From the NCBI RefSeq assembly GCF_000948985.2, contig NZ_CP059734.1, positions 124,001 to 188,000 of the forward strand: a DNA stretch of 64,000 nt, given 5' to 3'. Numbering within the stretch: the first letter of the stretch is position 1; the number at the start of each line of letters is the position of its first letter. Shown piece by piece: positions 6,460-25,232 of the stretch. The position numbers and the translations under genes are program-made. This stretch comes from Thalassomonas viridans. Its GTDB lineage: Bacteria; Pseudomonadota; Gammaproteobacteria; Enterobacterales; Alteromonadaceae. The notes under the pieces were generated by a model. That model made no database searches and was not told where the DNA came from. It was given only the letters and a program-made list of their open reading frames with translations.

Positions 6460-6461
6460 CA

Positions 6462-6809
6462 ATGAAGCCTGAAAAAACCCAATCACAGCAAAACAGTTCA
6501 CAGGAAAGGGAGCATCTTTTTGATAAACCGGAAAATGTCCGCCGGGTTATACGCCTGCTGGTGGCTGTTTGTGTACTCTTATTTGGCTTGGATTTTATTT
6601 TGCACCGTCATAGCTCCCATCCTTGGGAATATATACCGGGCTTTTATGCCTATTACGGCTTTATCGGCTGCGTATTACTGGTGGTCATCGCCAAATGGCT
6701 GCGCCTGGTTGTTAAACGCCCGGAGGATTATTATCGCCAGGAAGAACAAGATAACGGAGTAAAGCGCGAGCAGGAAAACAAGGAAGGAGGAAGTGATGTG
6801 GCTCCCTGA
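6462..6809 (+). CDS. Small two-helix membrane protein of the mrp operon
   Basis: 115 aa, GGAGG sits right before the start. Two hydrophobic helices (about residues 30-50 and 65-85) lie between a polar N terminus and a very charged C-terminal tail. The link between helices contains HRHSSHPWEYIPGFYAYYGF, a motif seen in small proteins that accompany expanded Mrp operons. No enzyme motif is visible. Its place between two antiporter-like subunits and its overlap with the next gene argue that it is an accessory subunit. I do not recognise a named family. Confidence 0.8.
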   Translation: MKPEKTQSQQNSSQEREHLFDKPENVRRVIRLLVAVCVLLFGLDFILHRHSSHPWEYIPGFYAYYGFIGCVLLVVIAKWLRLVVKRPEDYYRQEEQDNGVKREQENKEGGSDVAP

Positions 6810-8496: not shown

Positions 8497-9068
8497 TTGC
8501 CGGTATCAATAAAGAGCAATTCAAATCCCCTGTTGCAGGCCAGCGAGGGCAAGCATATACAGAGGTCATCTTTGCATCTGATACCTGTATTCTGCTCGGC
8601 GTGGCACTTGCCGCCGGTACAAAACTCTTTTCTGGCAAGATAATCCGTCTCGTCGGTGAAAGTTACATTGAAGTTGCTTGTCAGGTGTTTTCCTTCCTTT
8701 CGCCATTCGTTTAACAAATGCTCCCGGTCGGTTAATGCATCCGGTAGGGCCTGTTTGGTGACGATCAAAAACTCATGTCCGGCTTCCTCTTCTGCTGTTG
8801 CACCTGCCTGTGTTTTGGTGCCTGCGGCTCTGGCTGGCATAAGAAAGATTTTGGCAAGCTGGTATTTGCTTAAATTCCTGAGGCTAGATTTGATGACGTG
8901 GCTGATTACACCTCCATGGGCGTACCCGGGCAAGTCTGCGATGAGATTACCGAAAACATGGGGAATATTGAGGGCATCCAACGATTCAACATAATTTTGA
9001 TCTATGCGCTTATAGGCACGGGCATACATCGTCTCGATCATCTTCTCATACTGGGATTGATTGCTCAT
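8493..9068 (-). CDS. Hypothetical protein with Cys-rich C terminus
   Basis: 191 aa from the ATG at 9068; an in-frame TTG at 9077 would add three residues and has AGGA only 3-4 bases away, so the start is uncertain. No signal peptide or membrane helix. The last third carries a cysteine cluster (FCTGGKCHAEQNTGIRC, then DLCICLPSLAC), six Cys plus a His within 30 residues, which looks like a metal or zinc-binding module. It lies convergent to the Mrp operon and about 430 bases from the metallophore cluster, which starts in the opposite direction. Function unknown; a zinc-linked role is only a guess from position and cysteines. Confidence 0.65.
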   Translation of the reverse strand: MSNQSQYEKMIETMYARAYKRIDQNYVESLDALNIPHVFGNLIADLPGYAHGGVISHVIKSSLRNLSKYQLAKIFLMPARAAGTKTQAGATAEEEAGHEFLIVTKQALPDALTDREHLLNEWRKEGKHLTSNFNVTFTDETDYLARKEFCTGGKCHAEQNTGIRCKDDLCICLPSLACNRGFELLFIDTGN

Positions 9069-9077
9069 TGACGACAA

Positions 9078-9446
9078 TGTTCCTTTCAGGTGGCTCCCGG
9101 GATGCCTTGATTCACTTGAAGATTAGCAGATAAAGCATTTGAGATAAAAACTGATGCGCTTAAGTTCGAAGAATATAAATCCCGATTGCCTGTATCTCAG
9201 AGGAATACCAGGGCTTATCACAACTGAAAAAGCGGCTTTCGATGTGATTTTATATCAGCAATGTTCTGGGGTGACGTGCAGATAATAGCCGTATTGTTTG
9301 TTTGTTATACAGCTTATTAGTTCGTAATGTAAACAGAAACCTTTGTTTTGTATTTGAGATTAAGGTTCACACCTCTTCCCCCTCCCTTGTTTGATCATTG
9401 TTTTGTAGCGTTTTTTCTTTTATTGGTTAATTTTTTGTTATCTATT
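9078..9446. other. Non-coding stretch ahead of the metallophore cluster
   Basis: Divergent intergenic DNA, becoming AT-rich towards the right. I see no RNA gene, no convincing small ORF and no repeat. The regulatory sites for the receptor gene start after it. Confidence 0.5.
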
Positions 9447-9465
9447 TTTGCAAATAATTTTCATT
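9447..9465. promoter_or_regulatory. Fur-like box upstream of the TonB receptor
   Basis: Read on the minus strand, AATGAAAATTATTTGCAAA fits the Vibrio-type Fur pattern AATGANAATNATTNTCATT at 13 of 16 defined positions. It sits about 30 bases upstream of the predicted promoter elements. A pattern match only; the right half of the palindrome is weak. Confidence 0.4.
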
Positions 9466-9471
9466 CAGTTA

Positions 9472-9499
9472 TTGCCTGTAAATCACGAACCGTGATAAT
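9472..9499 (+). promoter_or_regulatory. Predicted sigma-70 promoter of the metallophore operon
   Basis: TTGCCT at 9472-9477 and GATAAT at 9494-9499 are separated by 16 bases. The -10 element runs into the Zur-like operator, an arrangement expected for repression. Confidence 0.4.
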
Positions 9500-9517
9500 G
9501 TGATATTATAACACTTT
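9495..9517. promoter_or_regulatory. Zur-like operator in front of the TonB receptor
   Basis: The core TGTGATATTATAACA (9499-9513) differs at one position from the palindromic core TGTTATANTATAACA of the gammaproteobacterial Zur operator. Over the full 23-base consensus I count 17 matches of 22 defined positions. An almost identical core (TGTGATAATATAACA) stands before the sbnI-like gene at the other end of the cluster, which makes chance unlikely. Confidence 0.65.
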
Positions 9518-9590
9518 AAAGGTGTTGTTTATAAAAATAGATCGAGCTGGCTGCTCGGGCCGCTCTTGCATAAACAATTTGGATTTCACG

Positions 9591-11702
9591 ATGAATAAAA
9601 CACGAGCTTTAAGCTGCGTTTCAGTATGCTTAATATCCATGAGCCAGGGGGTTGCTGCCCAGGAAGAAATAGAAAAAATAGCCGTCAAAGGCACGCGTAC
9701 GCCTTTGTATGATGCCAGGGATGTAAATGTTGCCGCCCTGGGCATTAAGGATCCCTTTACCTTGCCTATTTCGGTGCAGTCTTTTTCGGAAGAATTGATT
9801 GTCAACCAGAGGTCGCGCACCTTGGCCGAAGTGCTGGCTAATGATGCCTCAGTGCAAAATAGCGCAATCGGCAGTGTTTTTGATTTCGTCAGCTTACGGG
9901 GTTTCCAGCTGGACTGGACCAACGGTCTGCGCCGCGATGGCCTGGCGCTTGCCCCCTACCAGGACGTGCCGCTGGAAAACATTCAGCGCATTGATGTGAT
10001 TAAAGGCCCGTCGGGCCTGGTTTCGGGATTCAACAATCCGGGCGGCACCGTTAACTACGTCACCAAACGACCAACTCGCGACAGCTTTACCGAAGTAACG
10101 GCAGAAGTGCGCAGCCGGGACGGGAAATATCTGCACCTGGATACGGGGGGACAGTTAGGCGCGGCCTCTGATATGGGTTACCGCTTTAATGCTGCGGTTG
10201 AGGATACCGGAGACTTCAGCGGCGGCGATGATATGGAAAGATATTTTATCAGTGCGGCGTTTGACTGGCAGGCGTTGGATGATCTGCTGGTACGTATAGA
10301 TCTGGATTACCAGGATAAGTCTATGGTTTCCCAACCTTTGATCGGGCTGGCCACCGACAGCGAAAACGGCGGCAAAACCGTGTTGCCTCCTTATGTGGAC
10401 ACCAGTGATGTCCTGCTCGGCCAGCCCTGGGCCCGGTATGAAACAGAAACCTTTAACCTGGCCGCCAGGGTGGACTATTGGTTGTCGCAGGACTGGCAGT
10501 GGGTAACCCAGCTGGCGCATGCCGCCAATGACCGCTTTACGATTTTCCCTGATATCTACCAGGTAGATTTGCAGGGAAATGTGCTTTCCTCAGGCATTTT
10601 AGTTACTCCAGATGAAGAGTACCGTACCTTGTCGGGACACAGCTTTTTAAGCGGCAGCCTGGCCACGGGGAATATCGAGCACGAACTGGTTGCCGGATTC
10701 AGCTTTCGCGATTACGTCTCCCGTGACGGCCGCTGGTTCAGCCTGGACAATCCCGTAAGCAGTATTTTTAACCCGGTACACACGGAGAAACCTGAATTTC
10801 CCGAGTATCCGGATGCAACCCGCACCGATACCACGGAAAGTGCATTTTTTATTACAGATAAAGTGCATTTTACCGATGAGTTTTATGCCACTTTAGGCTT
10901 ACGCCACATCAACTACCAGAAAAAGCAGCAGGCGCCGGGCAGCGCCAGGATCACTTTGGATGATGAAACCTTTAATACCCCTATGGTGGGGCTTAACTAT
11001 AGCCCGAATGACAACCTGGCTTTTTATGCCAGTTATTCCGAAGGGGCCGGTGAAGGCGGGGTTGCCGTGATCGGCAGCGGCGCCGTTAACGAAGGCGAAT
11101 CTTTGGGACCGCAGGAAAGCGAGCAGCTGGAAACCGGGGTCAAGTACCGCAGCGGCAGCACTACCTATACTTTGGCCGTTTTTGAAATTGAAAAAATGCT
11201 GGAATACCACAACCGGGTGACTAACTATTTTGTTCAGGACGGGGTCCAGTCCCATCGCGGGCTTGAGCTGAACGTGAACGGGGAAATCACCGAACACCTG
11301 TCGCTGGTGGCTTCCCTGACCGCCATGAATGCCAAACTCACCGAACTTGAAGGAGAGGCGGTGCTTAATGGCAACCGTCCCGCCAATGTGCCGAAAAGAC
11401 AGGCCAGCTTATTTTTGGATTACCGCCTGCCCATGGTGGACGGCCTGAATGCCAATTTGGGGGTTTACTATGTCGGTGAGCGTGAGCAAAACGTACAGAA
11501 CACCCTGTCCCTGCCGGGCTATACCCGCTTTGATCTGGGGGCCAGGTACCAGCTTAGCGCCCTGAATACCACTTTACGCCTTAAGGTCGAAAACCTGTTT
11601 GACAAAGAGTACTGGTCGTCGGCGGGAGCCAAAGGCATTGACTGGGGGGTAAGTCCGGGCCGCGGACGTACGGTTTCTTTATCTGCCAGCGTGGCCTTTT
11701 AA
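9591..11702 (+). CDS. TonB-dependent siderophore/metallophore receptor
   Basis: 703 aa from the ATG at 9591, which opens a clean signal peptide (MNKTRALSCV to GVAA|QEE). An in-frame start at 9522 would put 23 polar residues before it. After the signal: plug domain with the TonB-box-like region (EKIAVKGTR), the plug motif IDVIKGPSGLVSGFNNPGG (about residues 135-153), then a 22-stranded barrel region with the family's C-terminal LKVENLFDKEYW and a terminal phenylalanine. It resembles the siderophore receptor branch (FpvA/FhuE type) rather than ZnuD. First gene of the putative zinc-regulated operon, so I infer import of the metal complex of the molecule made by the genes that follow. Confidence 0.9.
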   Translation: MNKTRALSCVSVCLISMSQGVAAQEEIEKIAVKGTRTPLYDARDVNVAALGIKDPFTLPISVQSFSEELIVNQRSRTLAEVLANDASVQNSAIGSVFDFVSLRGFQLDWTNGLRRDGLALAPYQDVPLENIQRIDVIKGPSGLVSGFNNPGGTVNYVTKRPTRDSFTEVTAEVRSRDGKYLHLDTGGQLGAASDMGYRFNAAVEDTGDFSGGDDMERYFISAAFDWQALDDLLVRIDLDYQDKSMVSQPLIGLATDSENGGKTVLPPYVDTSDVLLGQPWARYETETFNLAARVDYWLSQDWQWVTQLAHAANDRFTIFPDIYQVDLQGNVLSSGILVTPDEEYRTLSGHSFLSGSLATGNIEHELVAGFSFRDYVSRDGRWFSLDNPVSSIFNPVHTEKPEFPEYPDATRTDTTESAFFITDKVHFTDEFYATLGLRHINYQKKQQAPGSARITLDDETFNTPMVGLNYSPNDNLAFYASYSEGAGEGGVAVIGSGAVNEGESLGPQESEQLETGVKYRSGSTTYTLAVFEIEKMLEYHNRVTNYFVQDGVQSHRGLELNVNGEITEHLSLVASLTAMNAKLTELEGEAVLNGNRPANVPKRQASLFLDYRLPMVDGLNANLGVYYVGEREQNVQNTLSLPGYTRFDLGARYQLSALNTTLRLKVENLFDKEYWSSAGAKGIDWGVSPGRGRTVSLSASVAF

Positions 11703-11828
11703 AGAAAACGTAGCCGGCCCCTGAAATTCAGGTGTGCCTACAGCCCGTTGCACCTGCCGGGAGTACGGGCTGAGCAATTCAGGAATACACCGGCTTTTTG
11801 GGGCCGAATGTTTATAAAGGATTTATTT

Positions 11829-12566
11829 ATGAATAAAAATAATCAAACCAAAATCATCGAGGTTAGCCACCTTAGAAAAAACTTTGCCGGCTATCAGGCC
11901 GTACGGGATATCTCCTTTACGGTCAATCAGGGGGAAATCCTCGCCCTGCTCGGCCCTAACGGCGCCGGAAAAACCACCACCATAAATTGCATGCTGGGCT
12001 TTTTAAAACCCGACGGCGGAGAGGTCCATATAGACGGCATCAACCCGGCGAAAGACGTGGTCAGGGCGCGCCAGCAACTGGCTTACATTCCCGAGCAGGT
12101 AGCCCTTTACCCCAAGCTAAGCGGCCTGGAAAACCTGGTTTATATGAGCAAGATTGCCGGTGTCGATAAAAGCCGCGAACAATTCCAGCAGTTGCTGGAA
12201 AAGGTCAATTTACCCGGGCATGCCATACATAAGGCCATTGCCGGCTATTCCAAGGGTATGAAGCAAAAAGTCGGCATCGCCATTGCGCTGGCCAAAAATG
12301 CCAGGGCGCTTATTTTAGATGAGCCGACCTCGGGGTTAGATCCCAGTGCCAGCCATGAATTCAGCCAGCTGATCCGCTCGCTGGCGGGGGAAGGCGTCGC
12401 GATCTTAATGGCCACCCACGATTTGTACCGCGCCCAGGAAGATGCCCATTCGGTAGCGATCATGAATCAGGGCCGGCTGGTGCATAATATATCCGGCGAC
12501 ACCATTCAGAGCGTGCAGCTTGAGTCCCTCTATTTAGAGCATGTCAGGGTGGCAAGCACATGTTAG
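11829..12566 (+). CDS. ABC-2 type transporter ATP-binding protein (NosF-like)
   Basis: 245 aa from the ATG at 11829, which has AAAGGA 7 bases upstream; the longer frame from 11748 lacks such a site. All ATPase motifs are present: Walker A GPNGAGKTTT, Q-loop region YIPEQ, signature YSKGMKQKVG, Walker B ALILDEPTSGLDP and the switch histidine in ATHD. The short type and sequence match the ATPases of ABC-2 exporters such as NosF/CcmA. It overlaps the first permease by 7 bases. With the two permeases it would form an exporter in the inner membrane; in this cluster its cargo may be the metallophore or a precursor. Confidence 0.9.
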   Translation: MNKNNQTKIIEVSHLRKNFAGYQAVRDISFTVNQGEILALLGPNGAGKTTTINCMLGFLKPDGGEVHIDGINPAKDVVRARQQLAYIPEQVALYPKLSGLENLVYMSKIAGVDKSREQFQQLLEKVNLPGHAIHKAIAGYSKGMKQKVGIAIALAKNARALILDEPTSGLDPSASHEFSQLIRSLAGEGVAILMATHDLYRAQEDAHSVAIMNQGRLVHNISGDTIQSVQLESLYLEHVRVASTC

Positions 12567-13960
12567 CACTGACCCTGAAAAAAGAATGGCTGGAAAGCAA
12601 GCGCGAAGGCCGCAGCCTGTGGCTTGGCGGTATTATTTTATTGTTGCTGGTGTGCGCCCTGTTTTCCGGCTGGCACAACTATCAGCAGCTGCAAAGCCAA
12701 AAACACCAGGTCAGCCAGTCCGAGCGCGAACGCTGGCTCAACCAGGGAGAAAAAGACCCCCATAGCGCCGCCCATTACGGCGTTTATATCATCAAACCCG
12801 ACTCGGCGCTGGCGGTGCTGGATCCCGGCCTGTCGGATTACCTGGGATCTGTGCTGCGCCTGGAGGCCCACAAAAAAAATGATACCCTGTTCCGTCCTAT
12901 CCAGGATGCGATCCAGATGCAGCGTTTCGGCAGCCTGAATCCGGCGTTTATTTTGCAGATGCTGTTGCCGTTGCTGATTATTTTACTGGGATTTCACAGC
13001 ATAGCCGCAGAGCGCGAGTCGGGCACCCTAAAGCAATTGCTGGCCGGCGGCATCAGCGTCAGGAAGTTTTTTGTTGCCAAGGTGCTGGCCTTAACCGGTC
13101 TGGGGCTGCTGTTTTTTGCCCCTGTGGTGCTGCACCTTATCGCTTCGCTGTTGTTGAGCGAAAGCTCGGATGCGGGGCGCAGCCTGCTATTTAGCCTGAG
13201 CTACTGCGTCTATATCTTTATCTGGGCGCTGCTGACGGTGATTGTTTCCTGCTTTGCCCGCAGCGCCCGCGGCGCCTTGATTTTGCTGTTGGTGATCTGG
13301 TGCCTGGCCTGCCTGCTGGTGCCCAAATTCGCCATAGCAGATGCCGCCAGCCGCTACCCCACAGAGTCGGCGCAGGTTTTCCAGTCGAAACTGGAATCTG
13401 AGATCTATACCCCTGAGCGCCAGCAGGCGATAGAGGCGTTTAAGCAGCAAACCCTGGCGCAATACGGCGTTGATGATGTTGCTAATTTGCCTTTTGCCTG
13501 GTCCGGTGCCCAGCTGCAGTTTGCGGAAAACTATTCCGATCAGGTTTTCGATCGCCTGTACGGCCAGCGCCAGGGCCAGCTTGAAGCGCAAAGTTCGCAT
13601 TACCAGGGCAGTGCCCTGTTCAGCCCTTTTATTGCCCTGCAAAGTTTGTCGATGGCGGCTGCGGCCACAGATTTGACCCATCACCAACTGTTTGATGATG
13701 CCGGTGAAGCCCACCGCCGCCTGATGCAAAAGGCCCTTAACAACGACTTAAGGGATAACGGCCACAAGGGCGAACACGGTTATCAGGCCGACCGCGAGGT
13801 CTGGCAGAAAATTCCCGATTTTCATTATCAGTATCCGCCCGCCAGTGAATTATTCGCCAGTTACGGCTGGGCAGCCCTGGGCTTATTGCAATGGCTGCTG
13901 ACCCTGTTAGGGGTGGCATATCTGGCGATGTTGCGCCTGGAAAAGGAAGGTCAGCAATGA
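12560..13960 (+). CDS. ABC-2 type permease, DUF3526-like (first)
   Basis: 466 aa. One N-terminal helix (about residues 22-40), a periplasmic stretch, five hydrophobic helices from about 130 to 265, a long soluble region, and a last helix near the C terminus (GLLQWLLTLLGVAYLAML). The motif HSIAAERESGTLKQLLAGG after the second helix is the classical ABC-2/NosY intracellular motif. Start overlaps the ATPase gene, end overlaps the next permease gene by 4 bases (ATGA). Probably pairs with the permease at 13957. Confidence 0.85.
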   Translation: MLALTLKKEWLESKREGRSLWLGGIILLLLVCALFSGWHNYQQLQSQKHQVSQSERERWLNQGEKDPHSAAHYGVYIIKPDSALAVLDPGLSDYLGSVLRLEAHKKNDTLFRPIQDAIQMQRFGSLNPAFILQMLLPLLIILLGFHSIAAERESGTLKQLLAGGISVRKFFVAKVLALTGLGLLFFAPVVLHLIASLLLSESSDAGRSLLFSLSYCVYIFIWALLTVIVSCFARSARGALILLLVIWCLACLLVPKFAIADAASRYPTESAQVFQSKLESEIYTPERQQAIEAFKQQTLAQYGVDDVANLPFAWSGAQLQFAENYSDQVFDRLYGQRQGQLEAQSSHYQGSALFSPFIALQSLSMAAAATDLTHHQLFDDAGEAHRRLMQKALNNDLRDNGHKGEHGYQADREVWQKIPDFHYQYPPASELFASYGWAALGLLQWLLTLLGVAYLAMLRLEKEGQQ

Positions 13961-15429
13961 ATCAGCTTATTTGTTTAAACGAAATCAAAAACTTAAAACG
14001 TGAACGTTTGTTATGGCTGGTACTGGCGGTAACGGTTTGTTTCAGTGTTTTGGCCCTGTATAACGGCGCCCGCTGGGCCGAAGTGCAGAGCCAGGTGGTT
14101 GCCGCTGCCCAGCAGGAACAGCAGCAAGCGATCAGCAGTGCCCGGCAAGGTTTGGCGAAGCGGCAGGCGTTAACCAAACCCGTTAACTGGTGGGATGATG
14201 TTTACGATCTGCGCGGCCAGGCGTTTTACCTGATGGTGAATTATGCGGTGAAACCGCCGCTGCCGTCCGCCGCGATGGCGGTTGGCCAAAGCGATGTCCA
14301 GCCGTATTTTTTCAGGATGCTGGTGAGCGAAAAGCAGGCCTTTATCAACCACTACGATTTTGCCCACCCCCTGGGGTTATTGCTGGGTAAATTTGATTTG
14401 GCGTTTTTTATCATTTACATCTTGCCCGTGCTGCTCATCAGCATGAGCTATAACGCCCTGGCGGGAGAAAAGCAGACGGGTCAGCTGCGTTTGCTGATGC
14501 TGCAGGGACTCTCCCCCATGCGTTTGATTTTCAACCAGTTATGCATCCGGACAAGCGTGGTTTCGCTGCCGCTTTTGCTTGTCTGCATAACTGGTTTTTT
14601 TATTCTTTCAGACAACATCGGTCTGTTGTCGGTATCGGTTTTTACCGTTTTGGTGCTTGCCTATAGCCTGTTTTGGCTGGCGTTATGTGCTTTTGTTATC
14701 AGCTATGGCAAAACGCCTGCCTATAATGCCGCTGTGCTGATAGTAACCTGGCTGAGTTTGATCATTATCCTGCCTGCGGTGCTCAATACCCTGATCCTGA
14801 CCTCAGATCCGGCGCCGTCCCGTATCGAATATGTCGATACCCTGCGGGATAAATCCGATGAGGTGGACAAATCGTCCAGCAAGGCACTGGCGCAGTTTTT
14901 CCAGGACCACCCTGAGCTGGCAAAACCGGTGGACGATGCCAAGCCGGTGGACTATGCCACGAAAAAAATCGCCAAAATCACTGCCATCGAAGCGGCGATG
15001 CAGCCTTATGACGATGCCTTCCAGTCGGTCTTGGCGGCGCAGCAAGACAGGGCCGAGCTGCTGAAAATGATCTCGCCGGCAAGCTTGCTGCAGGGAGCCC
15101 TGTTCGATCTGTCCGGTAACGGTTTAAAACGTCACCAGGAGTTTATCGATCAGGTGCTGGCGCATCATCATGCCCTGCGCGCTTTCTATCAGCAGCGCAT
15201 CGCCGAGGCAAACAGCCGGGATGATTTTACTCCCTGTGCCGGCTGTAATGCCCGCATTACCTTGCCTGATCTGAGCCAGGTGCCTGAATTCAGCTACCGG
15301 GAAGCGCCGCTTGATGTTTCCTGGGGCAGTATCATGCTGTTGTTGCTTTTTTCCTTTGTACTGCTGTTTTCGGCAAGGCAGCGCCTGACGTTGATGAACA
15401 GCGGGCAAATGTTGGGAGAGCCGGCATGA
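13957..15429 (+). CDS. ABC-2 type permease, DUF3526-like (second)
   Basis: 490 aa from the ATG at 13957, coupled to the preceding stop. Same layout as its neighbour: an N-terminal helix, a large extracytoplasmic domain, helices from about 150 to 300 with ALAGEKQTGQLRLLMLQG as the ABC-2 motif, a second soluble part and a final helix. A CAGC pair in the second soluble part (FTPCAGCNARITLPDL) could bind metal or form a disulfide. The two permeases are paralogues and likely a heterodimer. The end overlaps the decarboxylase gene by 4 bases. Confidence 0.85.
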   Translation: MNQLICLNEIKNLKRERLLWLVLAVTVCFSVLALYNGARWAEVQSQVVAAAQQEQQQAISSARQGLAKRQALTKPVNWWDDVYDLRGQAFYLMVNYAVKPPLPSAAMAVGQSDVQPYFFRMLVSEKQAFINHYDFAHPLGLLLGKFDLAFFIIYILPVLLISMSYNALAGEKQTGQLRLLMLQGLSPMRLIFNQLCIRTSVVSLPLLLVCITGFFILSDNIGLLSVSVFTVLVLAYSLFWLALCAFVISYGKTPAYNAAVLIVTWLSLIIILPAVLNTLILTSDPAPSRIEYVDTLRDKSDEVDKSSSKALAQFFQDHPELAKPVDDAKPVDYATKKIAKITAIEAAMQPYDDAFQSVLAAQQDRAELLKMISPASLLQGALFDLSGNGLKRHQEFIDQVLAHHHALRAFYQQRIAEANSRDDFTPCAGCNARITLPDLSQVPEFSYREAPLDVSWGSIMLLLLFSFVLLFSARQRLTLMNSGQMLGEPA

Positions 15430-16772
15430 AGCAAGCATCGCTAAATGCCGTTTGCCATCCGCAAATCCAGTCCTTGCTGCGGTCAAACAAGGCCAAGTTG
15501 CAGGAATGGATTAACGGTTTAGGCTCGCCGCTGCATCTGGTTTTCCCCGAGATGTTCCAGCAAAATATTGTCAGCTTTAAGCAGGTGCTGGAGCGGCATC
15601 AGGTGGATTATCAGCTGTTGTTCGCGAAAAAAGCCAACAAGGCCAGGTGTTTTGCCGCGGTGTGCGCGCAAGAGAACATAGGCATAGACGTTGCCAGCGT
15701 GGCCGAGTTTGAACTGGCGCTGGCGGCCGGGGTGAGCGGAGCCGATATCGGGGTTTCCGGGCCGCATAAAAGCGAACCTTTGCTGCGCCTGGCCATGGCC
15801 CATAATGCTCTGATTGCCATAGACTCGGTTAACGAGTTAAGCGATCTTGCCTGCCTGGCCGCCGGCGCCGGGCAAGCACAGCCGGTGAGGATTTTGCTGA
15901 GAATACGTCCGCAAAGCCAGAAAAAAAGCCGCTTCGGTCTGGCCGGCTCCGAGCTGGAGCAGGCGCTGGCTTTTTGCCTGGAGTGGCGCCGCCATATCCA
16001 GCTGCTGGGGTTTAGTTGCCATTTATCCGGCTACTGCACCCGGCAGCGGGGCCAGGCCGGTCACCAGCTTATCGATTATATCGAACAGGCGCGCCAGCTG
16101 GGTTTAGGCTGTGACCGCATCAATATCGGCGGCGGCTTTGCCGTGTCCTATCTCGACAGCCCCGACTGGCGGCAATCCCTGGACTATGAAGCCTTTCACG
16201 CCGATAAAGCCTTCGGCGGCTTCTACCCTTACCACAACCCGGTTGCCGGCGCCGATGCCCTGCATCAGGTTTTGCTTGAGGAAAATGAGCAGCAGCTGAG
16301 CCTTGGCCGGCGTTTGCGGGAGCTGTCGTTAACTGTGCTGCTGGAGCCGGGGCGGGCTTTGCTCGACCAGGCCGGTATCAGTTTGTTTTCTGTGCAGGGC
16401 TGCAAACCTGTGTCGGGCACGTCTGACTGCCATATAGCAACGGTTAGCGGCATGAGTTTTTCCCTGTCGGAGCAGTGGTTTAATACGGAATACCTGCCTT
16501 CTCCCCTTTTGATCAGCGAGCAAAAGGATGAAGAGGACGCCCTGTACAAGGTGGCGGTGGCCGGTAATTCCTGTCTCGATGACGACATGCTCAGCTGGCG
16601 TTTTATCGCTTTTGAGCAATACCCGAAAAAACAGGACGTTATCGCCTATATTAATACCGCCGGTTACCAGATGGACTCCAACGAATCGGCTTTTCACTCA
16701 ACCGAACCTCCCCGTAAAGTTGCGGTGATGCTGACAGGGGATGTCATCACATGGCAATTAGATAATCAATAA
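15426..16772 (+). CDS. PLP-dependent decarboxylase, Y4yA family (DAP/ornithine decarboxylase fold)
   Basis: 448 aa, fold-type III PLP enzyme. The Schiff-base lysine lies in LLFAKKANKA (about residue 62), the phosphate-binding glycines in NIGGGFAVSY (about 236-245), LLEPGRALLDQAG gives the EPGR motif, and the C-terminal CLDDDM supplies the active-site Cys/Asp of the dimer interface. Related enzymes in siderophore clusters decarboxylate amino-acid-containing intermediates (SbnH acts on citryl-diaminopropionate). Here it sits directly upstream of the SbnA/SbnB pair, so a diaminopropionate-derived intermediate is a reasonable substrate, but this is inference. A short hairpin (16798-16815) without a T-tract separates it from the next gene. 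Confidence 0.85.
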   Translation: MKQASLNAVCHPQIQSLLRSNKAKLQEWINGLGSPLHLVFPEMFQQNIVSFKQVLERHQVDYQLLFAKKANKARCFAAVCAQENIGIDVASVAEFELALAAGVSGADIGVSGPHKSEPLLRLAMAHNALIAIDSVNELSDLACLAAGAGQAQPVRILLRIRPQSQKKSRFGLAGSELEQALAFCLEWRRHIQLLGFSCHLSGYCTRQRGQAGHQLIDYIEQARQLGLGCDRINIGGGFAVSYLDSPDWRQSLDYEAFHADKAFGGFYPYHNPVAGADALHQVLLEENEQQLSLGRRLRELSLTVLLEPGRALLDQAGISLFSVQGCKPVSGTSDCHIATVSGMSFSLSEQWFNTEYLPSPLLISEQKDEEDALYKVAVAGNSCLDDDMLSWRFIAFEQYPKKQDVIAYINTAGYQMDSNESAFHSTEPPRKVAVMLTGDVITWQLDNQ

Positions 16773-16844
16773 CCCCTGCTTTTTAGCAAACAAATAAGCA
16801 GCCGATCCCGGCTGCACAGTTAAAGGAAAATTAACGGAGCGCAT

Positions 16845-17894
16845 ATGACTACAGATGCACGGGCTTTTTGCGGCCAAAATTCAGGCAAACAGGCCTTAAC
16901 AAAACTTTCACAAACCATAGGCAATACCCCCCTGGTGGAATTGATCGCAACAAGCAACGGCAGCCGCCTGCTGTTAAAACTGGAGCAGTTCAACCCCACC
17001 GGCAGCGCCAAAATCCGTATGGCAAAGGCCATGCTGGATGAGGCCGAAAACCAGGACCTGCTCAAACCCGGCGGCTGGGTGGTGGAATCAACCTCGGGCA
17101 ATACCGGGGTCGGGCTGGCGATGTTGTGCGCCGAGCGCGGCTACCGCTTTACCGCCCTGGTGGATAACCATGCCGCCAAAGAAAAAATCAGCAATATGAA
17201 AGCCTTCGGCGCCGAGGTGATTTGCGTCAGCGAACAGGGCAGCGAGCAGCTGGCCACCGAAGTGCGCGATAAAATGGCGCAAACCATGGCGGCGGAACAG
17301 GGAGCCTACTGGACCGCCCAGCACAGAAACTTTGCCAACAGCCGCGGTTATACGGATCTGGCGGGGGAACTGGTGGCGGAACTCGGCTGTGATATCGATC
17401 AGCTGGTTGCCGCCGTCGGCACCGGTGGTTCCATCTGCGGTACCACCCGGGCCTTGCGGGATCTGGGTTGCCATCAGCTTAAGGTGGTCGGGGTGGAGCC
17501 CGAAGGTTCGGTGATTTTTGGCGGCCCGGGCATGCCTTACCACCAGTCCGGCACGGGTACCCCGGAAGGGGCGGAAATCGGCCCGGTGATCGAATACGGT
17601 CTGATCGATACCGGCATCAAGGTATCGGATCTCGCGGCATTCAATACCGCCCGCTACCTGGCGAAAAACCATGCCCTTATGGTGGGCGGCTCCGCCGGGG
17701 GCGTGATTTACCGGGCGCTGCAGCAACTGCAAAGCGCCCCTGCCAACAGCACTCTGGTGGCTTTGGTGTGCGACGGCGGCGAAAAATACCTGGATACGGT
17801 ATTTAACGATGACTGGATGCACAAACACCGGCTGGTGGATACCGGTATCGAGCATGAGTTAGCCGCACTTTTTCAGCAATTAACCGCAAAATAA
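16845..17894 (+). CDS. sbnA: SbnA-like N-(2-amino-2-carboxyethyl)-L-glutamate synthase
   Basis: 349 aa, fold-type II PLP enzyme of the cysteine synthase family. Lys56 in FNPTGSAKIR binds PLP, STSGNTGVG is the substrate loop, and GTGGSICGTT the phosphate loop. The family in this context condenses O-phosphoserine with glutamate to N-(2-amino-2-carboxyethyl)-glutamate (ACEGA). The call over plain cysteine synthase rests on the partner gene 10 bases downstream (SbnB-like) and on the facing SbnI-like kinase, which would supply O-phosphoserine. Cytoplasmic. Confidence 0.85.
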   Translation: MTTDARAFCGQNSGKQALTKLSQTIGNTPLVELIATSNGSRLLLKLEQFNPTGSAKIRMAKAMLDEAENQDLLKPGGWVVESTSGNTGVGLAMLCAERGYRFTALVDNHAAKEKISNMKAFGAEVICVSEQGSEQLATEVRDKMAQTMAAEQGAYWTAQHRNFANSRGYTDLAGELVAELGCDIDQLVAAVGTGGSICGTTRALRDLGCHQLKVVGVEPEGSVIFGGPGMPYHQSGTGTPEGAEIGPVIEYGLIDTGIKVSDLAAFNTARYLAKNHALMVGGSAGGVIYRALQQLQSAPANSTLVALVCDGGEKYLDTVFNDDWMHKHRLVDTGIEHELAALFQQLTAK

Positions 17895-17904
17895 GGACAA
17901 TAAT

Positions 17905-18896
17905 ATGACAACAACACAGGCGATAAGCCATCTACCTGTTTTAAATGCAGATACCATAGCAGCATTAGACTTTCCCTATGCCCGGGTGCTGCAAGTGGTG
18001 GAGCAGGCTTTTAAAGCCATAGACGATCCCGACTCGGCTAACCCGCTTAAGGTGATCATGACCCCCCAGGATGGCCGCTCTATCGCCTACAGCATGGCGG
18101 GAAGAGACGGCGGCAGCCAGACGGTGGGTTTTAAAGTGGTTTACGAGTTTGATCCGGACCGCAGCCGCGGCTCGTATCAGTTCTATTCCTTTATCTTTTT
18201 ATGCGACGACCTTACCGGACAGCCGGTGGCATTGATGGATGTCAAACAGCTTGGTCCTATGCGAACTTCGGCGACATCCGCGCTTTTTGCCAAAGCGGCG
18301 GTCAATCCCGATGCCAAAACCGCCCTGGTGCTAGGTACCGGCGTTCAGGGTCAGATTGCCCTGCCTATGCTGGTTACCGCCTTGCCGCAGCTGTCGCGCC
18401 TGATTGTCCATGGCAGCTACCGCGAGGGCATTGACGGGGTGCAGGCCAATGTTAAAAACATTTTCCGGAACGTGACGTGGAAGTCTCTGCCGATCTGGAG
18501 GCTTCGGTGCGTGAGGCGGATGTCATACTGGCGGTTACCGGTTTGTCCGCCAAGGAAAATATTCGCCATGAATGGCTAAAACCCGGTGCCGTGGTGATTT
18601 TAGTGGGTTACGGCATAGAAAAAGACGTGCTGCACAAGGCCGATCGGGTGATCACCACAGATGCCGATCAAATGAAAGTCACCGGGGATGATCTGTTAAA
18701 CGAGCAGGGGCAACTGCCTGAGGTCGCCGCTACCTTGAACGAAATCATTCACGGGCAAAAACCGGCCCGCAGCCATAAGGATGAAATCATTTTTGCCTAT
18801 AACAGCGGCATGATCATTACCGACGTTGCCCTGGGCCGTGCGGTGGCGGATTTTGCCCGGGATCAGGACAAGCTGGAGGCGGCGAAATTATGGTAA
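17905..18896 (+). pseudogene. sbnB: SbnB-like ACEGA dehydrogenase with a one-base frameshift
   Basis: Ornithine cyclodeaminase/mu-crystallin family; SbnB oxidatively splits ACEGA to L-2,3-diaminopropionate and 2-oxoglutarate with NAD+. The frame from 17905 encodes a normal N-terminal half (QLGPMRTSATSALFAKAA, then the Rossmann motif LGTGVQGQIA) and then runs out of family sequence. The other half (VEVSADLEASVREADVILAV, then NSGMIITDVALGRAVA) continues one frame away from about 18462. Adding one T to the TTTT run at 18461-18464 would restore a single 330-residue protein of normal length, with FPERDVEVSAD across the joint. Either a genuine lesion that breaks the pathway or a homopolymer reading error; the intact frames of all neighbours favour an error or a very recent mutation. 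Confidence 0.85.
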
Positions 18897-20269
18897 TGGC
18901 GGGAAAAATTTCAGATCTCAGGGAAATTGCCCGTCTCGCCGGGCCCTTGGTGTTAACCAACCTGTTGTATGTGGCCATAGCCACTATAGATCTGGCAATG
19001 CTGGGCATGCTCAGTCCGCTGGATCTGGCAGCGGGCGGTCTGGCCATTGCCGTGTTCAACCAGTTCGTGACCATAGGCAAGGGCCTGACGACGGCTACCG
19101 GCAACCTGGTCTCCCATGCCGTAGGCAAGGGTCAGCCGGAGCGCATCACTCCCCTGCTCAACGCCAGCCTGATCCTGGGCACCCTGATCGGCGTGCTGTT
19201 TTCTGTGCTTATGATGCTCAGCGAACCTTTGTTGTTATTGCTGGGCACTGTGCCCGAGGTGGCGGAAAAAACGTCGGTTTATTTGTCTGTGGTTGCCGTC
19301 GGGGTCTTGCCCTGCTTCTGGTTCCAGAGCATGCGCCATTTCAGCGTCGGCCTTAAATCCCCCGGTCCTTTGCTGCTGATCACTGCGGTGTCGGTTTTGC
19401 TGACCCTAGTGCTTAACTACGGCTTTATCTTCGGTGCGTTTGGTCTGCCGGAACTGGGCTTTACCGGTGTGGCTGTGGCCACCTGTATAGTGCTGTTTCT
19501 ATCGTTTTTCTGTCTGCTGTTTTTTGCCAGCCGTCATGAAAGCTTAAAACCCTATATCAGCTGGCGGTTATGGCAAACCGATAAGCAGGCGTTAAGCGCT
19601 ACTTGGAAAATGGGCCTGCCCATAGCCGCTACCTATGGTTCCGAAGCCGGATTTTTCACTGTCTTGTCCCTGTTTGTGGCTACTTTGGGGGTCAGTGAGC
19701 TTGCCGCCCATATGGTGATCATGCAAATCATTTATATCGTGTTTATGGTGGCGGCGGGTATATCATCTGCTTCGTCCATTTGCATCAGCGAAGCCCATGC
19801 CAAACAGGATTTTGCCCATGCAAAACGTATCGCTTATGTTTCTATCGGCGGCGCCATGAGTGTGATGCTGGTGATCATGGCGGTTTATTTAATTGCGCCT
19901 TCCTGGGTGCTGTACGGTTTTTTAAGCGCCGAGGAGCTGCAAAACTCTGATGTTGTCACCATAGCGGGCCGGCTGCTGATTATCGCCGCTTTCCTGCAAT
20001 TTTTTGATGCCGGGCAGAATATAGGCGTCGGCATTTTACGGGGGGTGGGTGATGTCAGCAGCGCCTTCTCGTTATCTGTGGTCGGTTACTGGTGTATCGG
20101 CCTGCCTTTGGCCTGGGTGATGAGTGTTGAAATGCAGTTGGGCATTGAAGGAGTATGGTACGCCTTAATGCTGGGGTTGAGCGTCACTGCTATCTCCCAG
20201 TTCTGGCTGTTTAACCGGCATATTAACAAGCTCAATAAGGAGCAGGCATTACAGGGAGGATTAGCCTGA
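18890..20269 (+). CDS. MATE family efflux transporter
   Basis: 459 aa with twelve predicted membrane helices in two homologous halves; MATE pattern visible at LAGPLVLTNLLYVAIATIDLAMLG near the N terminus (split: LAGPLVLTNL and IDLAMLGMLSP) and MGLPIAATYGSEAGFF at the start of the second half. The ATG overlaps the sbnB stop (ATGGTAA). MATE proteins export small cationic molecules using Na+ or H+ gradients. In a metallophore operon it is the natural candidate for secretion of the product, possibly sharing the task with the ABC-2 system. Confidence 0.88.
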   Translation: MVMAGKISDLREIARLAGPLVLTNLLYVAIATIDLAMLGMLSPLDLAAGGLAIAVFNQFVTIGKGLTTATGNLVSHAVGKGQPERITPLLNASLILGTLIGVLFSVLMMLSEPLLLLLGTVPEVAEKTSVYLSVVAVGVLPCFWFQSMRHFSVGLKSPGPLLLITAVSVLLTLVLNYGFIFGAFGLPELGFTGVAVATCIVLFLSFFCLLFFASRHESLKPYISWRLWQTDKQALSATWKMGLPIAATYGSEAGFFTVLSLFVATLGVSELAAHMVIMQIIYIVFMVAAGISSASSICISEAHAKQDFAHAKRIAYVSIGGAMSVMLVIMAVYLIAPSWVLYGFLSAEELQNSDVVTIAGRLLIIAAFLQFFDAGQNIGVGILRGVGDVSSAFSLSVVGYWCIGLPLAWVMSVEMQLGIEGVWYALMLGLSVTAISQFWLFNRHINKLNKEQALQGGLA

Positions 20270-21417
20270 TGGCAGCCAATACTAAATTAACAGAGACATT
20301 AAAAATCAATGCTCTGGTGAGGCCGGAAGTGGCCGGCCTGCCCGCTTACGGCGCGGGGCAGACCTTAAGCCAGGCGCAGATGGCTAGGCCCAGTGTGGAT
20401 ATGGTCAACCTGTCGGTAAACGAGAATCCGTTTGGCATCAGTGACCGGGCCAAACAAGCGCTGGAGCAGGCGTTTGCGGATGCCGCCTGTTACCCTGACA
20501 GCCAGTGCCTGGAATTGCGCGAGGTACTGGCAGAGCAATTGCCTTTTGAGCTGGAGCGCATAGTGGTAGGCAATGGCTCGGAAGACATTCTGTCTATGCT
20601 GTGCAAGGCTTTTATCAAACCCGGCGATCAGGTAATGGTTGCCAAACCGACTTTCAGCTTACACCCCATCTACGCCAATATGATGGGGGCCGAGGTGATT
20701 GCCGTGCCTATGTCGGCAGATATGCACTATGATGTCGAAGACTGGCTCAGGCATATCAGGCAGGCTCCCGAGCTGAAAGTACTGATGCTGGCGAACCCGT
20801 CAAACCCTGTGGGCTGTACTTTAGATCATCAGGGCTTAACCGCCTGCATTGCCGCATGCCCTCTAGATACCCTTATTGTGATAGATGAGGCCTATTTTGA
20901 ATTTGCCCAACAGGATGAGACTTTTGCCGACAGCCTGGCAATATTAGGCGCACAGTCCCACCCCTGGATAGTGCTGCGGACATTTTCAAAAGCTTATGGC
21001 CTGGCGGGTTTAAGGGTGGGCTACGGCCTGGTCTCAGACAGCAGCATTATCGACTACCTTGACCGGGTGCGCACTCCCTATAATGTCAACCGGGCGGCAC
21101 AAAGTGCGGCAATTGCTGTACTAAAGGATCCTGGTTATTTGCAGAAAACCTGTGCCCTGGTAAGCGAGCAGGCTTTATGGGTGAGAGCGGAACTTAAAAG
21201 CTTAGGTTTATTTGTTGCGCCGTCGCAGGCCAACTTTCTTTTTATCGATTGCGGCAGAGACGCCTGCCAGGTTGCCGGGCAATTGCTTGAGGCCGGGATC
21301 ATGGTTAAACCCTGGCGGGAACCGGGTTATGAACACTATATCCGAATGACCATAGGGCTGGAGCAGCAAAATAAACGCTTTGTCAGGGCGCTGGCACAGA
21401 TACTACAAGGAGATTAA
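20269..21417 (+). CDS. PLP-dependent aminotransferase, HisC-like (class I/II)
   Basis: 382 aa, fold-type I. Motifs: NENPFG near residue 45, GNGSEDIL for PLP phosphate, NPSNPVG, VIDEAYFEF (Asp and Tyr contacts with PLP), and the lysine in RTFSKAYGLAGLRVGYG. It resembles histidinol-phosphate aminotransferase but lies outside a his operon and is the last gene of the metallophore cluster, sharing one base with the MATE gene. Likely transaminates a building block or intermediate of the product; the substrate cannot be told from sequence. A strong terminator follows. Confidence 0.85.
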   Translation: MAANTKLTETLKINALVRPEVAGLPAYGAGQTLSQAQMARPSVDMVNLSVNENPFGISDRAKQALEQAFADAACYPDSQCLELREVLAEQLPFELERIVVGNGSEDILSMLCKAFIKPGDQVMVAKPTFSLHPIYANMMGAEVIAVPMSADMHYDVEDWLRHIRQAPELKVLMLANPSNPVGCTLDHQGLTACIAACPLDTLIVIDEAYFEFAQQDETFADSLAILGAQSHPWIVLRTFSKAYGLAGLRVGYGLVSDSSIIDYLDRVRTPYNVNRAAQSAAIAVLKDPGYLQKTCALVSEQALWVRAELKSLGLFVAPSQANFLFIDCGRDACQVAGQLLEAGIMVKPWREPGYEHYIRMTIGLEQQNKRFVRALAQILQGD

Positions 21418-21434
21418 GACCAAAGGATTAACCG

Positions 21435-21463
21435 GGCCTGTCAACTAAGTGACAGGCCTTTTT
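21435..21463 (+). terminator. Rho-independent terminator of the metallophore operon
   Basis: GGCCTGTCA and TGACAGGCC form a perfect 9-bp stem with a 6-base loop, followed by TTTTT. It lies 18 bases after the aminotransferase stop. Confidence 0.9.
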
Positions 21464-21470
21464 ATATTTA

Positions 21471-21623
21471 GGACGAATGGTATGCCATGGGCACATGGAT
21501 GTGCAGGAATGGCGATATTCAGGACGAATGGTATGCCATGGGCACATGGATGTGCAGAAATGGCGATATTCAGGACGAATAGTATGCCATGAATACATGG
21601 ATGCGAAGAAATGCCGGAAATCA
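21471..21623. repeat. Three tandem 51-bp repeats with internal palindrome
   Basis: Units begin at 21471, 21522 and 21573, each starting GGACGAAT. The first two differ at a single base that I can see; the third has diverged. Each of the first two holds the perfect hairpin GCACAT-GG-ATGTGC, nested in GCCAT...ATGGC. The array lies between the operon terminator and the end of the convergent sbnI-like gene; the third unit just reaches its stop. Looks like a palindromic intergenic repeat family rather than coding DNA. Confidence 0.8.
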
Positions 21624-22520
21624 ACAGGCAGCGCTTAACTCATTCAGTACACGGGCGCAGGTTTTATGGGGGAAATAAGTGGATTTTTCCGGAAAGTAAT
21701 GTCCTTTTTTGGCCGCATCGATAATGTCGCTGATCCTTGGCGCTGTCAATTCAATTAACAGCGTATCGGCACTCCTGGCTAAAGCAGGCAATTGCTTTTG
21801 CGGCACCGGACTCAGGTTGGCGACATTTTCTATCTGTTTCAGTGCCGTACGGATCTGGTGCTGTATTTTATATGAATCCCCCCGGGCGGCAGAATAACAA
21901 TAGCTGGTTTGCTGCCGGCGGTAGCTGAAAACATAATGGGCGTCGGACGGGCTGCAAGCCACTATGGCGAAGTTTTTAAGTTGTTGCTGCAATGCATGCC
22001 AGTCAAAGCCAGCTTTTGTCTTCAGGCTGAGTGCAAAACTGTTTACCGCAACCGAAGTGGAAGTTAACCAAACCGGCATAGTCGCCAGAGGAGCATGCGG
22101 CAGGCTCGACGCGAAGGCGCGGTGGTGGCCGTCGGCGATTAACAGCGCTTCCTGCCGTGCCAGTTGCTCCGCCAGCGCCTGGGTATTGTCATCTCCCTTT
22201 AACCGGTATAAATAATGCTCACTGTGATTTTTGTTATCGTACCAGCGGCTGATTTGTTCGCTGTTTTCCTGCCAGTTCAGTACCGAAAAATCCAGCTCGG
22301 CAATCAGGGCACAGGGAGGCAGTGTTATGGTCTCAGTCTGCAACAGTTTTTTAATCTTCATTGCATGGGACATAGATATTTGTTCGTGGGGCAATAAAAC
22401 CAGATTTTCGCTACCCTGCCGGCAGTAATTAAGTAAAACGCCGAGCGCTTCACTGCTTTCTTTGATGATTCTGTATAAGTAAAACGGCCTGTTATGAATT
22501 TGCCCTAGGGTATTGAGCAT
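21621..22520 (-). CDS. SbnI-like / DUF1015-related free serine kinase candidate
   Basis: 299 aa, cytoplasmic. The central motif LLIADGHHRAFASS (about residues 137-150) is the DUF1015/ParB-like signature shared with SbnI, which phosphorylates free L-serine to O-phospho-L-serine for the SbnA reaction and, in staphylococci, also responds to heme. Flanking elements of the family (an early ...RPFYLYRI segment and a C-terminal stretch of hydrophobic strands) are present. AAGGA lies 7 bases before the ATG. It is convergent to the biosynthetic operon and has its own promoter overlapped by a Zur-like site. The assignment depends on the DUF1015 motif together with the neighbouring sbnA/sbnB homologues; kinase activity is inferred. 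Confidence 0.7.
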   Translation of the reverse strand: MLNTLGQIHNRPFYLYRIIKESSEALGVLLNYCRQGSENLVLLPHEQISMSHAMKIKKLLQTETITLPPCALIAELDFSVLNWQENSEQISRWYDNKNHSEHYLYRLKGDDNTQALAEQLARQEALLIADGHHRAFASSLPHAPLATMPVWLTSTSVAVNSFALSLKTKAGFDWHALQQQLKNFAIVACSPSDAHYVFSYRRQQTSYCYSAARGDSYKIQHQIRTALKQIENVANLSPVPQKQLPALARSADTLLIELTAPRISDIIDAAKKGHYFPEKSTYFPHKTCARVLNELSAAC

Positions 22521-22546
22521 TTTGGGATCCTTAAATAACTATTTTT

Positions 22547-22569
22547 ATATTGTGATAATATAACAAGTC
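22547..22569. promoter_or_regulatory. Zur-like operator in front of the sbnI-like gene
   Basis: Core TGTGATAATATAACA (22551-22565) has one mismatch to TGTTATANTATAACA; 16 of 22 defined positions of the 23-base consensus match. It lies 27 bases upstream of the start codon and covers the predicted -10 box. Confidence 0.65.
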
Positions 22570-22583
22570 TGTTGCGCTGTCAT
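22555..22583 (-). promoter_or_regulatory. Predicted promoter of the sbnI-like gene
   Basis: Read on the minus strand: ATGACA (22583-22578), 17-base spacer, TATTAT (22560-22555). Both hexamers are 5 of 6 to consensus. The -10 lies inside the Zur-like operator. Confidence 0.5.
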
Positions 22584-22866
22584 ATCCAGATTTATTCACT
22601 ACAAGCCTTATCTTTTCATACCCTGCAGTATCTTACATATTTGTTATGACGCTTTTGTGTCTGTTGCTACTTCTTTACTGTGTAACTTTATATCAATTAT
22701 GCCGTTGGTGCGGGTGAGAGAGTATTATTGTTTGATCCCCTAAATGTTCCCTTTAATGCCCCCTAAAATTGAACGTTATTTATACTTGTGTTACATAAAA
22801 TTAACATATAGTATTTCGCCGTTGGTTATTTTTGGATATTGAATAAAAAACTATAAAAGGATCATT

Positions 22867-25026: not shown

Positions 25027-25232
25027 TTAACGCGTATGAGCTCCCTCGCCAGTAAAAGTTTCTGATGATATTTGCATAAACAGGTGTCATCTTCTTGTGT
25101 GCTGGCGGGCGTAATATGAGCTTGCATTAAATTTAATCGCAATAGTGATTAAAGACCACGGTGGTTACAGGAAGTTAATTGAAAGATAAATTGCCTGTAG
25201 CCATTTTTTAATTATTAGGAGTAAGGATTTCC

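What the first reader, a model, noticed from the sequence alone, without database searches (positions are those of the whole stretch)
9447..22583. A diaminopropionate-based metallophore locus under probable Zur control
Seen: near-identical palindromes (TGTGATATTATAACA at 9499, TGTGATAATATAACA at 22551), each one mismatch from the Zur core, overlap predicted -10 boxes at both ends of one gene set. Known families: SbnI (serine kinase), SbnA and SbnB make L-2,3-diaminopropionate, usually for iron siderophores. Inference: here the pathway is tied to zinc limitation, with TonB uptake, MATE and ABC-2 export, a PLP decarboxylase and an aminotransferase. A zincophore built on diaminopropionate, or on the ACEGA intermediate (an aminopolycarboxylate like EDDS), would be new for this group.
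Basis: partly seen in the sequence, partly recalled or inferred. Interest (0 to 1): 0.87.

Follow-up and report, generated by a model that had tools for sequence, protein, structure and literature searches.

The report
Zinc-controlled aminopolycarboxylate metallophore gene cluster
A marine bacterium carries a set of genes, apparently switched on by zinc shortage, that should make, export and re-import a small EDTA-like zinc-grabbing molecule; the same design recurs in several other bacteria, next to a sister design that is reported to serve iron.

Summary
Exact matches to a Zur-type palindrome occur at 3 places in the 7.95 Mb genome (about 0.055 expected): both promoters of this locus and the zur/zrg zinc-uptake locus. 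Of three one-mismatch sites, one precedes a ZnuD-like receptor and one a MerC gene. A zur gene is present; no ZnuA-family gene was found.

Gene content points to an aminopolycarboxylate rather than plain diaminopropionate. Decarboxylase, SbnA-, SbnB- and MATE-like genes occur together in 73 of 80 related loci, including species with described EDHA clusters (iron). EDDS (zinc) is the closest known product type. The genome has no NIS synthetase, but many NRPS genes elsewhere.

New here is a split. Of 23 loci with a HisC-like aminotransferase, 20 have a TonB gene; all 20 have a Zur-like box near its start, 13 significant singly. Among 14 loci of the other type none is significant. Fur boxes do not separate the types clearly (4 of 14 vs 3 of 20). 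Type-specific residues concentrate in SbnB, so the product may differ from EDHA.

Against: sbnB is frame-broken in this assembly; no expression or chemistry data. Best read as a new Gram-negative variant of the aminopolycarboxylate zincophore.

The parts
9499..9513 (.). Zur-type palindrome TGTGATATTATAACA; begins 92 bp before the TonB receptor start codon
   Evidence: similar place in L025 (4073) and Pseudoalteromonas loci
9591..11702 (+). TonB-dependent receptor (siderophore receptor subfamily TIGR01783, 360.8 bits, cut-off 223.5)
11826..12566 (+). ABC transporter ATPase, start approximate (best NCBIfam drrA, below cut-off)
12560..13960 (+). ABC-2 permease with DUF3526
13951..15429 (+). second ABC-2 permease with DUF3526
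15426..16772 (+). PLP decarboxylase of the Orn/DAP/Arg type (PF02784); some close relatives are named Y4yA family; core enzyme
16845..17894 (+). SbnA-like PLP beta-substitution enzyme (best NCBIfam TIGR03945 SbnA, 247.3 bits, below cut-off 349.95)
17905..18896 (+). SbnB-like dehydrogenase, frame-broken in this assembly (pieces 17905-18579 and 18477-18896; TIGR03944 47.7 and 45.2 bits, cut-off 326.9); intact relatives exist
18890..20269 (+). MATE exporter (PF01554)
20269..21417 (+). HisC-like class I aminotransferase (TIGR01141 304.5 bits, over its cut-off); a second gene over the cut-off lies at C1:4371158
21434..21459 (+). terminator-like hairpin (10 pairs) after the last operon gene
   Evidence: 3 such sites in the stretch, 1.8 expected
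21621..22520 (-). SbnI / free serine kinase-like protein (DUF1015, 36.9 bits, cut-off 25.8)
22551..22565 (.). Zur-type palindrome TGTGATAATATAACA; begins 45 bp before the sbnI-like start codon; a minus-strand -10-like hexamer lies inside it
   Evidence: similar place in L025 (17069)

Best explanation
The locus is a zinc-starvation unit that makes, exports and re-imports an ethylenediamine-type aminopolycarboxylate metallophore. SHOWN by sequence: Zur-type boxes at both promoters, a zur gene, the same box at the zrg zinc-uptake locus and (one mismatch) before a ZnuD-like receptor, a conserved enzyme core, no NIS synthetase in the genome. INFERRED steps: (1) Zn-Zur leaves both promoters when zinc is scarce. 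(2) The SbnI-like kinase makes O-phosphoserine. (3) The SbnA-like enzyme joins it to an amino acid (aspartate by EDDS logic, glutamate as in staphyloferrin B). (4) The decarboxylase removes the former serine carboxylate, leaving an N-(2-aminoethyl) amino acid. (5) The SbnB-like dehydrogenase couples the new amine reductively to a 2-oxo acid supplied by the HisC-like aminotransferase, giving two amino acids bridged by ethylenediamine. (6) MATE and/or the ABC-2 system exports it. (7) The TonB receptor takes the zinc complex back.
For: 3 exact Zur-type places in the genome vs 0.055 expected: this locus (two) and zur/zrg. One-mismatch places include a ZnuD-like receptor (417.4 bits, cut-off 950) and a MerC gene. 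Zur-like box (up to 4 mismatches) near the TonB start in 20 of 20 HisC-type loci having a TonB gene; in the start-anchored shuffle test 13 of 20 have p<=0.05 against 0 of 14 loci of the other type, Fisher p=0.00016. All four core genes in 73 of 80 loci. 0 IucA/IucC genes in the own genome. The HisC-like gene is a second copy, so it is free for a special role. The SbnI model's best structural matches are SbnI and free serine kinase. The intact SbnB relative's best PDB sequence match is 4m54 (75.7 bits), which I recall as S. aureus SbnB. EDDS is Zur-controlled and described as made by neither NRPS nor NIS logic (PMC4993170, passages).
Against: sbnB is frame-broken in this assembly. The TonB receptor scores as an iron-siderophore-type receptor. 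No expression, binding or metabolite data. 7 of 20 boxes are not significant singly. SbnA's best PDB matches are cystathionine and cysteine synthases, with S. aureus SbnA lower (178 vs 144 bits). The HisC-like gene passes the ordinary hisC cut-off. The genome is rich in NRPS genes (62 condensation-domain matches, none in this locus), so diaminopropionate could serve one of them. Reductive coupling by SbnB is inferred only.
Confidence: 0.72

Rival explanations
1. The locus makes free L-2,3-diaminopropionate (SbnI, SbnA, SbnB as in staphyloferrin B), which a synthetase elsewhere, such as one of the genome's NRPSs, builds into a metallophore or other peptide.
For: SbnA-, SbnB- and SbnI-like genes all present; 62 condensation-domain matches in the genome, the nearest on the same contig about 168 kb away.
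Against: No ligase gene in the locus; no IucA/IucC in the genome; the decarboxylase is in the conserved core and has no role in making diaminopropionate itself; no open frame over 1,030 aa in the 23 HisC-type loci, so no large NRPS travels with them.
Confidence: 0.15
2. It is an iron siderophore locus of the EDHA kind under Fur, and the Zur-like palindromes are incidental.
For: EDHA is described as iron-responsive (PMC10702961, passages); the TonB receptor scores as a siderophore receptor; 4 of 14 loci of the other type and 3 of 20 HisC-type loci pass the Fur-box test.
Against: Best Fur-box match before the TonB gene has 7 of 19 mismatches (p=0.53) and before sbnI 8 (p=0.97), while both Zur boxes have 1 (p=0.003, the lowest that 300 shuffles allow). 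The box is shared with zrg and a ZnuD-like gene.
Confidence: 0.06
3. The locus is decaying in this strain: the broken sbnB makes it a non-producer that at most keeps the receptor for uptake of metallophores made by others. (Compatible with the best explanation for the locus type.)
For: Frame break in sbnB; no decarboxylase match in 2 of 3 other genomes of the genus searched.
Against: The other locus genes are open and both operators are intact. The break could be an assembly error. The congener L025 has an unbroken sbnB frame.
Confidence: 0.3

Closest known systems
[S,S]-EDDS zincophore cluster of Amycolatopsis japonicum
   Same: Zur-controlled; aminopolycarboxylate described as made by neither NRPS nor NIS logic (PMC4993170, PMC6103462, PMC9252823: passages only)
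   Different: Actinomycete, so no TonB uptake; its gene sequences were not obtained or compared here; primary paper not held
EDHA siderophore clusters (Streptomyces scabiei, Burkholderia anthina)
   Same: Decarboxylase, SbnA-, SbnB- and MATE-like genes side by side in L064 and L041, loci of those species; a four-gene AesA-D core is described (PMC10702961, passages)
   Different: Iron-linked in print; no HisC-like or SbnI-like match in the L064 and L041 stretches; 8 positions in SbnB differ by type
Staphyloferrin B (sbn) locus
   Same: SbnA-, SbnB- and SbnI-like proteins; a decarboxylase of the same broad type (SbnH, recalled)
   Different: No IucA/IucC synthetase in the genome; Zur rather than Fur signals at this locus
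Opine-like zincophores (staphylopine, pseudopaline)
   Same: Zur control (pseudopaline) and export/TonB logic; a dehydrogenase plausibly makes the last bond
   Different: No nicotianamine-synthase-like match among the locus genes; the dehydrogenase is of the OCD/mu-crystallin family

Membership tests
Zur regulon member | zur gene in the genome | tested here: met
   3 FUR-family genes; the one at C1:6334346 hits the Zur model best (90.6 bits, below its cut-off of 167) and lies beside zrgA
Zur regulon member | operator shared with zinc-uptake genes and rare elsewhere | tested here: met
   6 places with <=1 mismatch: 2 here, zur/zrg, ZnuD-like, MerC, 1 without zinc link
Zur regulon member | zinc- and Zur-dependent transcription | not testable with these tools
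   needs bench work
Aminopolycarboxylic acid metallophore cluster (EDDS/EDHA type) | SbnA-like, SbnB-like, decarboxylase and MATE genes together | tested here: met
   sbnB is broken here. That these four correspond to AesA-D is inferred from L041 and L064
Aminopolycarboxylic acid metallophore cluster (EDDS/EDHA type) | no NRPS or NIS synthetase in the cluster | tested here: met
   nearest condensation domain about 168 kb away; 0 IucA/IucC in the genome
Aminopolycarboxylic acid metallophore cluster (EDDS/EDHA type) | sequence kinship to the A. japonicum EDDS genes | not tested
   sequences not obtained
Aminopolycarboxylic acid metallophore cluster (EDDS/EDHA type) | aminopolycarboxylate product | not testable with these tools
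   needs mass spectrometry
Staphyloferrin B (sbn) locus | NIS synthetases (IucA/IucC family) | tested here: not met
SbnI / free serine kinase | same fold | tested here: met
SbnI / free serine kinase | serine kinase activity | not testable with these tools
   HE and DGHHR conserved in 6 of 6 sequences, the window's included
Opine-like zincophore cluster | nicotianamine-synthase-like gene in the cluster | tested here: not met
   none among the locus genes scanned

The most novel reading that the evidence does not exclude
A previously undescribed zincophore, neither EDDS nor EDHA: an ethylenediamine core joining aspartate or glutamate to a second amino acid whose 2-oxo acid comes from the HisC-like aminotransferase (perhaps an imidazole-bearing one). 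It would be shared by marine Thalassomonas/Pseudoalteromonas and by Pseudomonas, Acinetobacter, Microbulbifer and others, and form the zinc branch of an enzyme family whose sister branch serves iron.
Probability: 0.43. Interest if true: 0.72.

Novelty: new variant of a known kind. Interest (0 to 1): 0.63.

Why it matters
Few bacterial zincophores are known; in the passages that I read, pseudopaline (opine type) is the one Gram-negative example named as Zur-controlled. This gives a concrete, testable branch (decarboxylase + SbnA + SbnB + HisC-like + TonB, Zur boxes) next to relatives reported to serve iron (EDHA). One can then ask how one short pathway was retuned between metals by changing its operator and, as the residue pattern suggests, its last enzyme. 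In genomes with no ZnuA found, such as these Thalassomonas, it may be an important route for scarce zinc (inference).

Tried and rejected
Rejected or unproductive: (a) Chance palindromes (0.055 expected exact places). (b) Fur control of this locus. (c) ZnuABC as the co-regulated system: no ZnuA match in the genome. The absence also holds in two congeners without the locus, in G095 and in three Pseudoalteromonas (7 of 21 genomes), so it looks like a lineage trait, not one tied to the locus. (d) A 23-base E. coli-style Zur consensus (recalled) found nothing at up to 3 mismatches. (e) A recalled actinobacterial Zur box, sought on one strand of 39 actinobacterial loci, gave one weak match each in 3 of 39 (L071, L090, L091), so no zinc link was shown there. 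(f) An Rfam scan of 8400-23000 gave no match. (g) The HisC type is not one clade on the decarboxylase tree (3 changes, at least 2 forced); the printed output was cut in the middle, so the SbnA tree was seen in part. (h) 'Fur boxes mark the other type' is not borne out as a contrast: 4 of 14 against 3 of 20. (i) In the genomes with IucA/IucC genes (9 of 33, eight of them HisC-type) I did not check whether these lie near the locus. (j) The EDDS gene sequences could not be obtained.
Full report
SETTING. The window is C2:124001-188000 of a 7.95 Mb, two-contig genome. A genome of the same genus, G095, has the locus, and its decarboxylase hit has the same coordinates as that of Thalassomonas sp. RHCl1, so the organism is most likely a Thalassomonas (inference).

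OBSERVATION. Both palindromes are at the stated places and one mismatch from TGTTATAWTATAACA (core recalled). The degenerate form TGTKATAWTATMACA occurs exactly at three places in the genome; 0.055 were expected from a Markov model trained on the window and four stretches. Two of the three are here. The third (C1:6336047) lies between a DUF3299 gene and an ABC ATPase + FtsX permease pair, next to DUF1826, ZrgA (PF10986, 141.9 bits), a FUR-family gene whose best NCBIfam hit is Zur (90.6 bits; cut-off 167) and MerC. zrgABC(DE) is listed in the V. cholerae Zur regulon (PMC6103462, passages). Three places have one mismatch: before a 99-aa protein without Pfam match that is followed by a ZnuD-like receptor (417.4 bits, cut-off 950); 100 bp before a MerC gene (92.5 bits); and C1:4771926, with no evident zinc link. 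At up to two mismatches the pattern is hardly above its reversed control (35 vs 29). No ZnuA-family gene was found (the control rang in 11 of 14 known genomes).

RELATIVES. Some close relatives of the decarboxylase are named Y4yA family, others alanine racemase or diaminopimelate decarboxylase. A scan of genome contigs found 326 relatives; the best 80 were kept. Of these 80, 78 have an SbnA-like match (100 bits or more), 79 an SbnB-like (60 or more), 74 a MATE match (100 or more) and 73 all of these; several that lack one are short contigs. 23 of 80 have a HisC-like match over 250 bits. Thalassomonas RHCl1 and six Pseudoalteromonas loci share the whole gene order including three ABC genes and the opposite sbnI-like gene; no other of the 80 has an SbnI-like match. 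IucA/IucC genes are absent from the own genome and from 24 of 33 genomes searched (own and 32 of the loci's genomes); of the 9 with such genes eight are HisC-type, and whether they lie near the locus was not checked. The own genome has 62 NRPS condensation-domain matches, the nearest about 168 kb from the locus on the same contig.

REGULATORY SPLIT. Of the 23 HisC-type loci, 20 have a TonB match over 300 bits. All 20 have a Zur-like box with at most 4 mismatches in the stretch around the start. In 19 it lies upstream of the first ATG; in L033 it lies just inside the longest frame, whose true start is probably later. In the start-anchored test (300 bp upstream, 300 shuffles) 13 of 20 have p<=0.05; L026, L027, L028, L029, L033, L049 and L050 do not. 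In the window, L025 and five Pseudoalteromonas loci the box begins 88-99 bp before the start; in L030 the best hit is at 256 bp, with a weaker one nearer. Of 16 other loci with a TonB match, L043 and L054 have Zur-type boxes (p 0.03 and 0.003) and group with the HisC type on the decarboxylase tree; I counted them apart. Of the remaining 14, none has p<=0.05 for Zur. Fisher for 13/20 vs 0/14: p=0.00016. In some of these 14 the TonB gene is not adjacent to the core (for example L034, L040). For Fur boxes, 4 of 14 (L038, L052, L065, L075) and 3 of 20 (L030, L031, L037) have p<=0.05: not a clear contrast, and double control in some HisC-type loci is possible. The HisC type falls into two clades on the decarboxylase tree (9 rows, support 97; 18 rows with L043, L051 and L054, support 99), mostly with different gene order, so the Zur/HisC link either is old or arose more than once.

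PRODUCT LOGIC. SbnA of S. aureus joins O-phosphoserine to glutamate to give ACEGA (PMC12414870, passages). Positions fixed differently in the two types (90% rule) number 2 in SbnA, 0 in the decarboxylase and 8 in SbnB; five of the eight lie 2 to 18 residues behind the GFK lysine (a catalytic role of that lysine is recalled). HisC-type rows were 24, 24 and 23, other rows 51, 52 and 50, with L043, L051, L054, L088 and L090 left out. This suggests that the types share the first steps and differ in the last, in line with a different 2-oxo acid partner and an aminotransferase in one type only. Step order and partners are inference.

KNOWN. EDDS of A. japonicum is Zur-controlled, called a zincophore, and described as made by neither NRPS nor NIS logic (PMC4993170, PMC6103462, PMC9252823: passages). 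EDHA is described with a four-gene AesA-D core and as iron-responsive, and was predicted in B. anthina (PMC10702961, passages) and placed in S. scabiei at scab_5231-5311 (PMC8914351, passages). L041 and L064 lie in those species; that L064 is that very cluster is inferred from locus-tag order. antiSMASH 7 lists aminopolycarboxylic acid metallophores as a class (PMC10320115, passages). Paper searches listed no paper whose title or shown abstract start describes a Zur-linked aminopolycarboxylate in Gram-negative bacteria; the primary EDDS and EDHA papers are not held.

VERDICT. The finding is real and its interpretation largely supported: a new variant (Gram-negative, TonB-coupled, HisC-containing, Zur-linked) of a known kind. 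The broken sbnB leaves open whether this very strain makes the compound, and the product itself is not known.

Noticed in passing
window 9243-9257: A third, weaker palindrome (TGTGATTTTATATCA, 2 mismatches) 256 bp before the main box; L025 has a weak one (3834) 239 bp before its box. Possible second operator.
   Followed up: partly
G000, G013, G061, G095 and Pseudoalteromonas G099-G101: No ZnuA-family match in these 7 of 21 genomes searched; the other 14 have one.
   Followed up: partly
L019 6802-7224 and L005 1023-1415: Two MerC-family genes, one in the zur cluster and one 100 bp from a one-mismatch Zur-type site: a hint of a zinc role for MerC-like proteins here.
   Followed up: partly
L031, L032, L037, L044, L049 upstream of the TonB gene: GATAACGATTCTCA-like sequences, as in Fur boxes, besides the Zur-type box in Pseudomonas loci: possible double zinc/iron control.
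   Followed up: no
window 39639-39653 (-) and 49886-49900 (+): The same 15-mer TTTGATAATTTAACT on opposite strands about 10 kb apart, perhaps parts of an inverted repeat.
   Followed up: no
C1:4771926 (in L020): One-mismatch Zur-type site with no evident zinc gene nearby (nuo genes and a PEP-CTERM protein).
   Followed up: partly
G000 C2:314094-583866: Dense NRPS region (most of the 62 condensation-domain matches), with a cysteine-synthase-like gene at C2:516275 (30% identical to the SbnA here).
   Followed up: no
window 22867-26162 and 4942-8496: FG-GAP repeat protein and a polysaccharide lyase (PF14099) right after the locus; Mrp-antiporter-type gene before it.
   Followed up: partly
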